Below are positions 30,231 to 44,620 of a DNA stretch of 64,000 nucleotides, one piece after another (the stretch's first letter is position 1; the number at the start of each line of letters is the position of its first letter). The position numbers and the translations under genes were made by a program. The notes beneath the pieces are model-generated. The model was not told the DNA's origin. It did no database searches and saw only the letters and a list, made by a program, of their open reading frames with translations. This stretch comes from Paenibacillus sp. PvR098. Lineage in GTDB: Bacteria > Bacillota > Bacilli > Paenibacillales > NBRC-103111. Location of the stretch: positions 1-64,000 of the forward strand of contig NZ_JAFIBU010000001.1 in the NCBI RefSeq assembly GCF_017833255.1, read 5' to 3'.

Positions 30231-30530
30231 GTGCCAGGTTTTTTCAGTGCAATCGCTTTGTTTATCAAGGAATTAATGCTGCTGGTTTCCTATGTAAAGA
30301 ACAATGCTTTCCCTCAACCGCTTGCGGAAGACGAGGAGGAAAAACACCTGAGGCTGATGGCGCAGGGGAATCAACATTCTCGTAATCTATTGATTGAGCA
30401 TAACCTTCGCTTAGTAGCTCATATAGTCAAGACGTTATGTTCAAAGTCCGATGTAAATCATTTGTTTTACAGTGGCGGGTTTTGGTTGTTAAGACAGGAA
30501 GATATCAAATTAAAACCTTTGTGGAAATAG
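30231..30530 (+). CDS. sigK: sigK 5' half (spoIVCB), interrupted by the skin element
   Basis: N-terminal part of the late mother-cell sigma factor sigma-K. Residues 1-67 contain the pro-sequence region (FIKELMLLVSYVKNNAFPQP) and the start of region 2 (RNLLIEHNLRLVAHIVK). After Lys67 (codon 30429-30431) the frame runs into unrelated skin sequence and stops at 30530, giving a 99-residue dead product. GGGAGGTG precedes the GTG start at 30231. The rest of the gene lies at 44120-44620. Joining after codon 67 gives HIVK-KFDNTGEDLEDL, the exact sigma-K sequence. It becomes functional only after excision of the intervening DNA. Confidence 0.96.
   Translation: MPGFFSAIALFIKELMLLVSYVKNNAFPQPLAEDEEEKHLRLMAQGNQHSRNLLIEHNLRLVAHIVKTLCSKSDVNHLFYSGGFWLLRQEDIKLKPLWK
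30427..30432 (+). repeat. left att core of the skin element
   Basis: TCAAGA, shared with 44115-44120; lies across sigK codons 66-68. Flanking bases diverge immediately on both sides. Confidence 0.85.
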
Positions 30531-30684
30531 AGGTGGACAAGCCTTAGAGCTTAAAAACAGTGAGAGTCCAATGCATTTATTTACCTTAGGCTCCACGAGG
30601 CTGCGTGGTTAACCTTTCAATATATTATTAAAACATTAGAAAGGCTGCTTTCCCGTCAAGACGTTAGAGCAGCCTTGATGCTAC

Positions 30685-30855
30685 TTAAATTTCATTTTTG
30701 GGAATACCATTTAAACTTGGGACATAATCGGCCGCTTTATTGCTTGTCAACGTCTGAGCTTCTTCAGTGAAATTATCATTATTCTGTTGATTGTCCTTCT
30801 TATCTGCACGATTATCTGCGCGGTCCATTTTGGGATCGGCGCTATTTTTTGGCAT
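30685..30855 (-). CDS. small hydrophilic protein inside skin
   Basis: A 56-residue protein, very polar (MPKNSADPKMDRADNRADKK, then Asn/Gln-rich), without hydrophobic segments or Cys. The ATG at 30855 has GGAGGTG 8 nt upstream, which supports translation. It resembles small spore or stress peptides in composition only; I do not recognise it. A hairpin (AGGCTGCT/AGCAGCCT, 30640-30676) lies downstream of its stop and may terminate it. Confidence 0.6.
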   Translation of the reverse strand: MPKNSADPKMDRADNRADKKDNQQNNDNFTEEAQTLTSNKAADYVPSLNGIPKNEI

Positions 30856-31490
30856 AACATTCACCTCCATTTTCTCACACATAGTATGAGAAGATGGTTT
30901 GCATTTTATCCCAGCGGTCCCGGAACTATCGACGCTCCGGGTACATTTCTTTGTGCGCGAGGAATTCAAACAGATTCGATATCGTTTTGCTGTCTAGTGA
31001 AAATAAAGGATGAGACTAAAAAATAAAGTATTAGACCGAGAATCCTTCAGTCCCAATAATTTTTTCTGATTCAACATTGACCCCTTTATCCCTAAAGGTT
31101 GGATATCGGACGATTTGGACATGATCCTAGAAGAGGATTACGTAGATAATCTCGATGAATTCGGCGAAAAATTATATATAAATACTCTTATCAAAATAAC
31201 AACGGCCATTAAATAACTGGGCAGTATGAGAAACGCGAAGCAAAAGCAAAAGGGAAATATATTGTGTACAAAGATTGCGACGGATACATTGTCAAAGAAT
31301 ATCCAGATGGGACGGTTATCCCTGTAACCTAGCCCGGTGAATTTTGTAATGGCATTTGACGGATATTAAGCATTGGTGCAACAAGTTAAAGACCCTCGCT
31401 TTGGAGGCTTTGAGTAGGGGCTTTTTCGTTGGAAGAAGAGTAACTTACAAATGTAATCTCATTTACAATTAATTAAAATATAAGCTATTG
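30856..31490 (+). other. degenerate region of skin with two short gene relics
   Basis: No intact gene. About 31078-31216 reads IDPFIPKGWISDDLDMILEE and further to KITTAIK then stop, without a start. A second stretch in a shifted frame ending at 31330 reads GKYIVYKDCDGYIVKEYPDG. The two may be the halves of one frameshifted small gene. The rest is unassigned AT-rich DNA before the ars promoter. Confidence 0.4.
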
Positions 31491-31516
31491 AATATATAAT
31501 CATTTTCTTATATATT
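31491..31516. promoter_or_regulatory. inverted-repeat operator upstream of arsR
   Basis: AATATATAA and TTATATATT are perfect complements separated by 8 bases, 46 bases before the arsR start. AT-rich imperfect dyads of this type are bound by ArsR/SmtB repressors; autoregulation by the ArsR encoded next is inferred. Confidence 0.55.
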
Positions 31517-42372: not shown

Positions 42373-42392
42373 ATCGCTGTCGGTTTTATTTT
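42354..42392 (+). terminator. terminator of the 59-residue gene
   Basis: AAAACCGACAGCG and CGCTGTCGGTTTT arms with an 8-nt loop, followed by ATTTT. Confidence 0.9.
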
Positions 42393-42483
42393 CTAGTGAA
42401 TAAAGAGAGTGCTATCTCCTATACTGATCTTCATAAGTGTATATAACGAAGAATACTGTTATGTTCAAAGGTGGTGTTTTTTG

Positions 42484-44130
42484 GTGTTAGCTCTATATGT
42501 ACGTGTATCGACTGTCTTGCAGATTGACAACACGAGTTTGGATCAACAAGTTGAATTATGTAAAAAACTTGCTTATCAAAAGGGCTTTACTGATAAAGAT
42601 ATTCTCATTTATAGGGAAGAAGGATTTTCTGGGGAAGACATTGACATTCGTCCTACGATGATGAAATTAAGGGAAGATGTATCGGAAGGTCTTATCTCAC
42701 ACGTTATTTGTACCCACCCGGACCGTCTAAGCCGTGACCTTACGGATAAGTTAATTGTGGTTCGCGAATTTGAGAAAAGTGGGGCTGAGATTTTTTTTAC
42801 GGATACGGAGTTTGAGAAATCTCCTGAAGGTATCCTTTTTTTCAACATTATATCTGCTATTGCTAGCTATGAACTTGCCCTCATACGGAAAAGGACAGTA
42901 AGGGGTAGAGAACGCGCGGTACGAGAACTGAAAAAGATTATGCCTATGCGTGTCGCGCCCTTTGGTTATGACAAAGATGAGAATGGGCAGCTCATTATAA
43001 ATACGCATGAGGCACAATACGTGAAGATGATTTATGAGTGGTACATTTATGAAAATTTAACGACAAGGGAGATAGGCGAGCGATTGATAAAGTGTGGTGT
43101 GATGCCCAAGAGGGGCGAATCAAAGAATTGGAGCGCTTCCAGTATAGGCAGAATTTTATCTTCTGAGATCTACATAGGAAACTATTATTATAATCGCAGA
43201 CAATCTAAAAAAGTCAAAGGTCAAACAACGAAATCTGGGAATCCCAAACGGACCCTAAGTTTGCGTGAAGAGGAAGATTGGTTACATGTACCCGTGTCAC
43301 CCGTTATTGATCAGCCTTTGTTTCATTTAGCACAAAAGCAAAAAGAGAGAAACATAACAAATAAACATGTTGGTAATCAAACATACGAATTCTTACTCAA
43401 ATCATTATTAAAATGCGGTCATTGCGGAAGGACTTGGGATGCAACAACATACTCTGGCAGCCTTGATAAGGAGACGGGCAAAAGAATGAAGTACCGGTGT
43501 TATCGATGCCCAAATCTTGCTCCAAAAAAGTATGGACCTGGGGTGAAAAGATGTCCTAGCCAATCATTACGAGCCGAACTGCTCGAAGATTATATGTGGA
43601 ACCAGGTTGTTGCACTTGTCAGTGAGCCGGAGCATTATCTAAAACAAATCGATCAAACATCGAAAGGTGGAGCTCAGGAGCTTCAGCTTCGTGTTCAAAC
43701 CTTGGAGCGGGAAATCGAGCAAAGATATAAAGAGAAGGAAAAGGTAAAACTCATGTTCTGGCGCGATGTGATCTCGGAAGAAGAAATGATAACTGACTTA
43801 AAACGATTGAATGACACTGTCATTAAACTCAAACAAGAACTAAACCATTACAGTATTCAAATACAGACGATCCATAATGATGAACATACTTTAGATAAAT
43901 TAATGAGCTTCATCAATCACATTCAAGAAAGGCTCAAGGAACCAGAAAAGCTGACTTTTCAATTCAAGCGACATATTATCGAAATGTTCTTCAACGAAAT
44001 CATATTACGCTTTGAAAGTAATGATCTAGAGAAGCCTGAGCTCGTCATTATGTCCGTAGGGGCATTTGACAAGCTTATGCAGCAAAAGAATGACATAGGA
44101 GTTCGAACACAACCTCAAGAAATTCGATAA
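42484..44130 (+). CDS. spoIVCA: large serine recombinase (SpoIVCA-type excisionase of skin)
   Basis: A 548-residue site-specific recombinase. The catalytic domain begins LALYVRVSTVLQ with the nucleophile Ser9 and contains THPDRLSRDLTDKL and the ASYELALIRKRT helix. A recombinase domain (MRVAPFGYDKDENGQL), a zinc ribbon (CGHCGRTWDATTY and CYRC...CPS) and a coiled coil (LEREIEQRYKEKEKVKLMFW) follow. The GTG at 42484 comes after AAAGGTGG. Its last 11 bases (44120-44130) lie in the sigK 3' half, so excision removes its end. It should join the sigK halves in the mother cell. No sporulation promoter was found by eye. Confidence 0.95.
   Translation: MLALYVRVSTVLQIDNTSLDQQVELCKKLAYQKGFTDKDILIYREEGFSGEDIDIRPTMMKLREDVSEGLISHVICTHPDRLSRDLTDKLIVVREFEKSGAEIFFTDTEFEKSPEGILFFNIISAIASYELALIRKRTVRGRERAVRELKKIMPMRVAPFGYDKDENGQLIINTHEAQYVKMIYEWYIYENLTTREIGERLIKCGVMPKRGESKNWSASSIGRILSSEIYIGNYYYNRRQSKKVKGQTTKSGNPKRTLSLREEEDWLHVPVSPVIDQPLFHLAQKQKERNITNKHVGNQTYEFLLKSLLKCGHCGRTWDATTYSGSLDKETGKRMKYRCYRCPNLAPKKYGPGVKRCPSQSLRAELLEDYMWNQVVALVSEPEHYLKQIDQTSKGGAQELQLRVQTLEREIEQRYKEKEKVKLMFWRDVISEEEMITDLKRLNDTVIKLKQELNHYSIQIQTIHNDEHTLDKLMSFINHIQERLKEPEKLTFQFKRHIIEMFFNEIILRFESNDLEKPELVIMSVGAFDKLMQQKNDIGVRTQPQEIR
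44115..44120 (+). repeat. right att core of the skin element
   Basis: TCAAGA inside the final codons of the recombinase gene; identical to 30427-30432. Confidence 0.85.
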
Positions 44131-44620
44131 TACAGGAGAGGACTTAGAAGATCTCATTTCTATTGGCACGATAGGGTTAATCAAAGCGATCGAATCGTTT
44201 TCTCCGGATAAAGGAACCAAATTGGCTACGTTCGCGGCTAGGTGTATTGAGAATGAGATCCTGATGCATCTGCGTTCGTTGAAAAAGACCCGCAAAGACG
44301 TATCGCTTCATGACCCGATTGGTACGGATAAAGAAGGAAATGAAATTACATTGATTGACATTCTCGGAACGGAAGCCGATGACGTCGTGGATAAGGTACA
44401 GTTGAAGATTGAAAAATCGAAAATATACCGCAACCTGGATATTTTAGACGGACGGGAGCGGGAGGTGGTCGTTGGCCGTTTTGGACTTGAGGCGGGAGGA
44501 GAAGAGCGTACGCAGCGCGAAATTGCGAAGGAGCTGGGCATATCGCGTTCGTATGTATCGCGGATCGAGAAGCGTGCGTTAATGAAGCTGTATCATGAGT
44601 TTTATAAACAGAAAAGATAG
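44120..44620 (+). CDS. sigK: sigK 3' half (spoIIIC)
   Basis: Begins at codon AAA 44120 as KFDNTGEDLEDLISIGTIGL and continues through region 2.4 (TFAARCIENEILMHLRSLKK), region 3 and region 4 (TQREIAKELGISRSYVSRIE) to a stop at 44618-44620: 166 residues. It has no start of its own and depends on excision. After joining, sigma-K has 233 residues, against 241 in B. subtilis, which ends in a longer basic tail. Confidence 0.96.
   Translation, partial: KFDNTGEDLEDLISIGTIGLIKAIESFSPDKGTKLATFAARCIENEILMHLRSLKKTRKDVSLHDPIGTDKEGNEITLIDILGTEADDVVDKVQLKIEKSKIYRNLDILDGREREVVVGRFGLEAGGEERTQREIAKELGISRSYVSRIEKRALMKLYHEFYKQKR

What the first reader, a model, noticed from the sequence alone, without database searches (positions are those of the whole stretch)
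30231..44620. sigK is interrupted by a compact skin element with resistance cargo
Seen: two partial sigma-K frames 13.7 kb apart, identical TCAAGA cores at both junctions, and a large serine recombinase at the right end. Known: in B. subtilis and some clostridia SpoIVCA-type recombinases excise skin in the mother cell to rebuild sigK. Inferred: excision between codon 67 (AAG) and 44120 gives HIVK-KFDNTGED and a 233-residue sigma-K. The element has no phage structural genes, and its gene content is almost entirely metal and metalloid resistance.
Basis: partly seen in the sequence, partly recalled or inferred. Interest (0 to 1): 0.95.

Follow-up and report, generated by a model that had tools for sequence, protein, structure and literature searches.

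The report
Metal-resistance island splitting sporulation sigma gene
In this relative of Paenibacillus the only copy found of the sporulation gene sigK is cut in two by a 13.7-kb island that carries arsenic- and copper-type resistance genes and its own recombinase, which is predicted to cut the island out during sporulation so that full-length sigma-K can be made; in other spore formers the same gene is cut at this spot and at up to two more.

Summary
Confirmed and extended. sigK is split after codon 67 (30231-30431, 44120-44620) by a 13,688-bp element; the 4.7-Mb genome holds no intact copy. Joined, the halves pass the curated SigK cut-off and are 99% identical to an intact relative. Attachment sites in six genomes place the crossover at one AA inside TCAAGA; the circle site is an imperfect palindrome. 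A 59-aa ORF before the recombinase is a candidate directionality factor; a promoter-like motif stands upstream in 11 of 18 held-out loci. So: a non-phage, skin-type element, predicted to be excised in the mother cell; excision is untested. Nearest described case: island IV of B. cereus biovar anthracis, which is excised. Two wider results. First, this recombinase group lies beside sigK in 18 of 18 other class-level loci, and nine of those genomes have sigK in three or four pieces, cut near codons 67, 115 and 143, each site with its own recombinase group. Second, many Paenibacillales keep an intact sigK followed by displaced sigK 3' ends behind one half-site (39 of 44; 0 of 30 intact copies), like SCC or integron cassettes; how these arise is inferred.

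The parts
30175..30182 (+). sigE-type -10-like octamer CATACAAT upstream of the sigK 5' half
   Evidence: read; consensus recalled, not from a call
30231..30431 (+). sigK 5' half, codons 1-67
30427..30432 (+). attL core TCAAGA; crossover dinucleotide AA at 30429-30430
30431..30458 (+). left half of the circle site (attP arm P')
   Evidence: 21 of 28 arm positions pair with the right arm
30685..30969 (-). 94-aa ORF, no family found
31541..31894 (+). ArsR/SmtB-type repressor
31906..33303 (+). ArsB-type arsenite efflux pump
   Evidence: TIGR00935 738 bits, cut-off 415
33362..33787 (+). arsenate reductase ArsC (thioredoxin type)
   Evidence: TIGR02691 over cut-off
33800..34267 (+). ArsI/CadI-family dioxygenase-like protein
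   Evidence: NF041414 over cut-off
34280..34726 (+). dual-specificity phosphatase-like protein
35095..36186 (-). CopD-domain membrane protein
   Evidence: over Pfam, below NCBIfam cut-off
36186..36821 (-). CopC-domain protein
   Evidence: over Pfam, below NCBIfam cut-off
37100..37822 (+). OmpR-type response regulator
37819..39222 (+). sensor histidine kinase
39219..39422 (+). 67-aa ORF, no family over cut-off
39347..40531 (+). F510_1955-family beta-propeller-like protein
40600..40824 (+). 74-aa ORF, no family over cut-off
40891..41502 (+). SCO1/SenC-type protein
41489..42034 (+). 181-aa ORF, no family found
42149..42169 (+). promoter-like motif GGACA-N12-CATA (predicted sigE/SpoIIID type)
   Evidence: in 11 of 13 first-set and 11 of 18 held-out upstream regions, 0.13 expected from shuffles in each set
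42193..42372 (+). 59-aa ORF, candidate recombination directionality factor
   Evidence: small ORFs of like layout upstream of related recombinases
42350..42391 (+). hairpin at the end of the small ORF, terminator-like
   Evidence: -25 kcal/mol, z -7.4; the terminator scan did not list it
42484..44130 (+). large serine recombinase, 548 aa
44089..44116 (+). right half of the circle site (attP arm P), inside the recombinase gene
44115..44120 (+). attR core TCAAGA; crossover dinucleotide AA at 44117-44118
44120..44620 (+). sigK 3' half, codons 68-233 and stop

Best explanation
A 13.7-kb non-phage island splits sigK after codon 67 and is predicted to be excised in the mother cell by its own large serine recombinase, helped by a likely directionality factor encoded just upstream, which would rebuild a 233-aa sigma-K. 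Shown by sequence: the split, the direct cores, the in-frame product, the lack of another intact sigK, the palindromic circle site, the open recombinase frame. Inferred: recombination between AA at 30429-30430 and AA at 44117-44118; the 59-aa ORF acts as directionality factor; a sigE/SpoIIID-type promoter limits it to the mother cell, so the forespore genome keeps the island and its arsenic and copper functions are inherited. In the circle the recombinase frame would read 39 codons past the core, so integration probably also trims the enzyme's C terminus.
For: Only a split sigK, and a SpoIIID gene, in the genome. Joined protein 364.6 bits (cut-off 298.65), 99% identical to an intact sigK. Six genomes with both ends held: identical cores TCAAGA, TCAA, AAGA, TCAA, TCAA, AA; the common part is AA. 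Circle-site arms match 21 of 28 in the window (4 of 50,000 random positions as good) and 18-23 of 28 in five others (0-5 of 50,000). In 14 of 18 class-level loci the recombinase 3' end abuts a sigK piece that starts at codon ~67. Small ORF and motif recur. SigmaA-type promoter TTTACG-17-TATAAT before the recombinase in L017 and L018, which fits the C. difficile logic of constant recombinase and sigE/SpoIIID-driven factor (PMC5025042, passages read). Island IV, 22 kb, inserted at nt 195 of sigK with a 545-aa recombinase, is excised as a circle (PMC10745906, section 11, section 16 part 2 and passages read).
Against: No excision product was or could be observed. In the window no sigmaA promoter was found before the recombinase and the scan listed no terminator. 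The window's -10-like box reads CATAGGAT, a poor match to the recalled sigE consensus. The motif is missing in 7 of 18 held-out loci and 2 of 13 first-set ones, and near-identical regions are among those that have it. The small ORF matches no known directionality factor and the set shares few columns (mean column identity 30%); in some loci no such ORF was listed (L128, L134, L140).
Confidence: 0.85

Rival explanations
1. A mobile resistance island that uses sigK as attB and excises at low level in growing cells for transfer; the sporulation link is a by-product and not controlled by sigE.
For: The recombinase group uses one site across Bacilli; cargo is of resistance type; sigmaA-type promoter before the recombinase in two relatives.
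Against: Spread alone does not explain a recurring sigE/SpoIIID-like motif before the small ORF, nor a host that keeps sigK only in split form together with SpoIIID. No transfer genes were recognised in the element.
Confidence: 0.1
2. A dead insertion: the strain has lost excision and makes no sigma-K.
For: No excision data; the genome (4.7 Mb) is smaller than 23 of the other 24 in the genus sample.
Against: Both sigK halves, both att sites, the recombinase frame with its RVS motif (recalled as catalytic) and the small ORF are all open; the joined protein is 99% identical to an intact one.
Confidence: 0.05
3. The B. subtilis skin element reduced to its resistance genes and recombinase (common descent).
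For: Both interrupt sigK and both carry arsR, arsC and an ArsI-type gene (PMC12607644 passages).
Against: The B. subtilis pump is Acr3-type, here ArsB-type (PMC12607644). B. subtilis recombines at AATGA and SpoIVCA is 31% identical to the island IV enzyme (PMC10745906); the window group uses AA at codon 67, while AATGA occurs at another site in sigK, near codon 143, that goes with another recombinase group. SpoIVCA itself was not compared here.
Confidence: 0.03

Closest known systems
Island IV in sigK of B. cereus biovar anthracis (PMC10745906)
   Same: Non-prophage island in sigK at nt 195 (window AA at nt 199-200), 545-aa serine recombinase overlapping sigK, shown to be excised as a circle during sporulation. 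A 545-aa recombinase labelled B. anthracis in the protein listing is 50% identical to the window's; whether it is that very gene was not tested.
   Different: There the recombinase lies beside the 5' fragment in the opposite direction and cargo is restriction-modification; here it lies beside the 3' half in the same direction and cargo is arsenic/copper type.
B. subtilis skin
   Same: Splits sigK; carries its serine recombinase, a small directionality factor just upstream (Skr, PMC6957869 passages) and ars genes (PMC12607644 passages).
   Different: Prophage remnant of 48 kb, other core (AATGA), Acr3-type pump.
C. difficile skinCd (PMC5025042)
   Same: Serine recombinase plus separate directionality factor; att half-sites built on inverted repeats.
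   Different: Prophage-like; other position and orientation in sigK than B. subtilis (PMC10745906).
gin element in gerE of B. cereus ATCC 10987 (PMC5595907)
   Same: Non-phage gene-intervening element excised during sporulation by recombinase plus RDF.
   Different: Other host gene, three recombinases.
Alicyclobacillus phage MMB025 in sigK (PMC13141910)
   Same: sigK-integrated, serine integrase.
   Different: Infectious phage; integrase 31% identical; core TCTC.
SCC cassettes with Ccr recombinases
   Same: CcrB is the best NCBIfam hit of the recombinase; tandem composites and non-canonical att pairs (PMC5595907 discussion passage; rest recalled).
   Different: 155 bits against a cut-off of 900; target is mid-gene of sigK.

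Membership tests
sigK-intervening (skin-type) element | sigK split into two parts, no intact copy elsewhere | tested here: met
   whole genome
sigK-intervening (skin-type) element | site-specific recombinase encoded inside | tested here: met
sigK-intervening (skin-type) element | direct att cores whose recombination restores the frame exactly | tested here: met
sigK-intervening (skin-type) element | directionality factor | tested here: inconclusive
   small ORF in the right place, no match to a known factor
sigK-intervening (skin-type) element | mother-cell control | tested here: inconclusive
   motif in 11 of 18 held-out loci; consensus recalled
sigK-intervening (skin-type) element | excision during sporulation | not testable with these tools
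   needs DNA from sporulating cells
B. subtilis skin lineage | same core | tested here: not met
   AA within TCAAGA here, AATGA in B. subtilis (PMC10745906)
B. subtilis skin lineage | same recombinase lineage | not tested
   SpoIVCA sequence was not in hand
Prophage remnant | phage structural genes | tested here: not met
   none among 17 ORFs (12 with PHROGs, five with Pfam only)
SCC element (CcrA/B/C) | Ccr recombinase over family cut-off | tested here: not met
   155 of 900 bits

The most novel reading that the evidence does not exclude
sigK is a gene kept in pieces by a community of dedicated recombinases. Three groups each own one site (codons ~67, ~115, ~143); in Aneurinibacillus and Thermoactinomycetaceae the gene lies in up to four pieces and three different elements must all be excised in the mother cell before sigma-K can be made. 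At codon 67 the same chemistry also runs an integron-like branch: cassettes that carry their own sigK 3' end rebuild a whole sigK on integration and push the old 3' end downstream, giving arrays of up to six extra ends. The window island is the one-element form.
Probability: 0.5. Interest if true: 0.9.

Novelty: new variant of a known kind. Interest (0 to 1): 0.8.

Why it matters
Developmental rearrangement at sigK is usually told as a story of one prophage remnant. Here a compact resistance island does it with a recombinase group that was found beside sigK in nearly every locus examined, next to two further groups with their own sites in the same gene. That makes an old question testable: why an essential sporulation gene is such a favoured target. 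The mother cell is a dead end, so an element that excises only there costs nothing to its own inheritance. Genes in three or four pieces would be the strongest known case of this, and the displaced sigK 3' ends, if mobile, a new kind of cassette platform built on a developmental regulator.

Tried and rejected
Flank test for arrays: I compared ORFs up- and downstream of sigK between genomes to see whether the last fragment is followed by the ancestral flank. Neighbourhoods are too poorly conserved; no answer. Tree of 46 sigK 3' segments (three fragments with shifted frame left out): fragments often group with the intact copy of their own genome (G045, G071, G078, G061, G012, G079), so simple acquisition from distant hosts is not supported; G082 fragments do not group with the G082 copy. 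Recombinase inside arrays: no PF07508 match at 1e-6 lies in the arrays of G045, G012 or G071, and G071 has none in its whole (95% complete) genome; those cassettes would need an enzyme in trans or are relics. This counts against a living cassette system. Promoter scan of the window gave nothing for the recombinase. Plasmid search with the element: no match. A direct comparison with SpoIVCA was not made; the 120 rows listed of 217 show none so named (one is called cisA, P0054, 50% identical). The read-through of the recombinase into the left end in circle form occurs in 6 of 6 genomes with 23-39 codons, but a random frame would stay open that long fairly often, so it is only a lead.
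Full report
OBSERVATION. The window lies at the start of a single 4.7-Mb contig. sigK is in two parts: 30231-30431 and 44120-44620. Joining at AAG (codon 67) gives ...LVAHIVK-KFDNTGEDLEDL..., 233 aa. Separately the parts score 75 and 276.5 bits against the SigK model, joined 364.6 with a cut-off of 298.65. The genome has 16 matches to that model, none an intact SigK.

ELEMENT. Between the cores lie 13,688 bp of lower GC with an ars operon (arsR, arsB, arsC, ArsI/CadI type, then a phosphatase-like gene), CopC/CopD, a two-component pair, an Sco1-type protein, a few unassigned ORFs, a 59-aa ORF and the recombinase. 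No phage structural family was found (12 of 17 ORFs with PHROGs; the other five with Pfam).

SITES. In six genomes I held both ends of an element of this recombinase group (window, G025, G026, G104, G009, G016). The longest identical stretch between the two ends is TCAAGA, TCAA, AAGA, TCAA, TCAA and AA; the only part common to all is AA. The circle site (right end joined to left end) is an imperfect palindrome around that AA: 21 of 28 arm positions in the window, 18, 18, 21, 23 and 22 in the others; random positions reached this in 0-5 of 50,000 tries. The attB site is not palindromic (5-8 of 19). In G009 a contig carries a circle-type junction between two elements: its recombinase and that of the contig ending in sigK are 86% identical and the left ends differ, so two elements probably stand in tandem there; contig order was not proven.

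CONTROL UNIT. Upstream of many related recombinases there is a small ORF of about 41-66 codons, poorly conserved but alike in layout. Before it stands GGAC[AG]-N12-[AC]ATA at fixed spacing: 11 of 13 regions of the first set, in which I saw the motif, and 11 of 18 held-out class-level regions, against 0.13 expected from dinucleotide shuffles in each set; some regions in each set are near copies of one another. I read it as a sigE-type promoter with a SpoIIID-type box; both consensus sequences are recalled. The window's ORF ends in a -25 kcal/mol hairpin with U-rich 3' arm, and in L017 and L018 a sigmaA-type promoter stands before the recombinase. Together this would be the C. difficile logic: recombinase made steadily, directionality factor only in the mother cell (PMC5025042, passages). 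For the window the sigmaA promoter was not found.

DISTRIBUTION. Family sample: 11 of 104 genomes have the recombinase at 1e-75, the window included; of the 11 other loci 9 lie beside sigK sequence, one ends at a contig edge and one at the circle-type junction. Class sample: 19 of 398 at 1e-90, the window included (only three candidates per genome were scored, so more may exist). Of the 18 others, 14 recombinase genes end at a sigK piece that starts at codon ~67; two lie upstream of an intact sigK or its start (L140, L137), one is followed by a separate 3' fragment (L142), one faces a sigK 5' half (L141). So all 18 lie beside sigK.

GENE IN PIECES. In nine of those 14 loci the piece that starts at codon 67 stops being sigK near codon 117 or 144. 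I searched these nine genomes and one of the others (G406) for all sigK pieces at 1e-12. Four pieces: G266, G496, G237, G372. Three: G148, G390, G280, G222, G172. Two: G406. No intact sigK in any of the ten. In G266 the four pieces (residues 1-70, 63-117, 112-145, 141-231) lie in order on one strand of one contig, with 15.3, 4.0 and 68 kb between them; in G148, a single-contig genome, three pieces lie in order. In G372 the last piece is inverted; in G496, G237, G280, G222 and G172 the pieces are spread over contigs. Site 2 lies in the codons of EILM (about 114-117), site 3 at AATGA in the codons of GNE (about 141-143). Each site goes with its own recombinase group; the ten group B and C proteins scanned all have the three large-serine-recombinase domains: group A at codon 67, B inside the site-2 element in six genomes, C inside the site-3 element in five. 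Identity within groups is 46-67, 62-78 and 45-95%, between groups 23-38%. AATGA is the sequence given for the B. subtilis site (PMC10745906), so site 3 may be the B. subtilis skin site; not tested. That all elements are excised is inferred.

ARRAYS. In the family sample 97 of 104 genomes match sigK at 1e-64 and 40 of 104 have more than one match (not all checked). Of the 66 partial matches that call lists (more were cut; window and skin-type loci among them), 65 begin between residues 42 and 67 and run to residue 231-233, counted by eye; the other ends at a contig edge. In G082, G045, G012, G071 and G070 an intact sigK is followed on the same strand by 3' fragments, likewise in order mates G109, G167, G283, G294 and G472. 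Of 44 displaced fragments examined, 39 have KTNCAYANNNTYAAR exactly at the boundary; of 30 intact copies none. Left out before the count: the window and five other skin-type right ends, and three far-off fragments counted apart (2 of 3). Still among the 44: two skin-type right ends (G016, G349) and two fragments broken elsewhere; the other three misses are one-base shifts or a changed CA. The consensus TTACATCGCTTCGTGT.CACAACCTCAA is close to the right-end half-site of elements whose recombinase abuts sigK, such as GACATCGGTTCGTGTTCACAACCTCAA. A genome-wide pattern gave 17 hits in 10 genomes and none for the reversed pattern; the five genomes without arrays had none. In G058, G064, G082, G167 and G472, all with extra sigK 3' ends, the recombinase lies 0.4-1.1 kb upstream of the intact sigK, as in an integron. 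In G104 an element carries a whole, diverged sigK just inside its left end. Who moves the cassettes, and whether they still move, is inferred; three array genomes hold no such recombinase in the array.

COMPARISON. Island IV of B. cereus biovar anthracis is the nearest published case: non-prophage, nt 195 of sigK, 545-aa recombinase, excision and circle shown by Southern blot and sequencing (PMC10745906, section 11 and section 16 part 2 read). The B. subtilis skin also carries ars genes, but with an Acr3-type pump (PMC12607644, passages), so arsenic cargo in a sigK element probably arose twice. Ten searches of the open library listed no account of sigK elements in Paenibacillus, of sigK in more than two pieces or of displaced sigK ends; listings were capped and only titles, abstract starts and the cited passages were seen. 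Subscription papers, among them the survey that PMC5595907 cites as reference 11, were not seen.

VERDICT. Real, and well explained as a skin-type element of a sigK-dedicated recombinase group; excision is untested. The four-piece genes and the arrays are the more novel part.

Noticed in passing
L161-L179 (G266, G148, G496, G237, G372, G390, G222, G280): sigK in three or four pieces with no intact copy, cut near codons 67, 115 and 143; three recombinase groups, one per site.
   Followed up: partly
L066-L082, L091-L093, L099-L101, L146-L157 (G082, G045, G012, G071, G167, G472, G109, G283, G294): Displaced sigK 3' ends behind a common half-site, downstream of an intact sigK; spacing as short as 0.7-1.2 kb in G012, one stretch with a ParE-like gene.
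   Followed up: partly
window 30655-30666: A second exact copy of GTCAAGACGTTA, the attL core with its flank, 229 bp inside the element (0.14 matches with up to one mismatch expected in the window, three found).
   Followed up: partly
L052, L025 (G104): A complete, diverged sigK copy sits about 210 bp inside the left end of an 88-kb element that splits the original sigK.
   Followed up: partly
L054, L055, L041 (G009): Two related elements apparently in tandem, joined by a circle-type site, and a further break in sigK near codon 140-145.
   Followed up: partly
L015, L031, L036 (G022): A recombinase about 31% identical to the window's beside a sigK 3' piece, in a genome where sigK is broken near codons 102-117: probably the second site in Paenibacillaceae.
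   Followed up: no
window 44100-44130: In the circle form the recombinase frame would continue 39 codons past the core into the left end of the element; the same holds with 23-35 codons in five relatives.
   Followed up: partly
L017 8884-9465, L018 8569-9207: PemK/MazF-like genes shortly before the control unit in two related elements, possibly for element upkeep.
   Followed up: no
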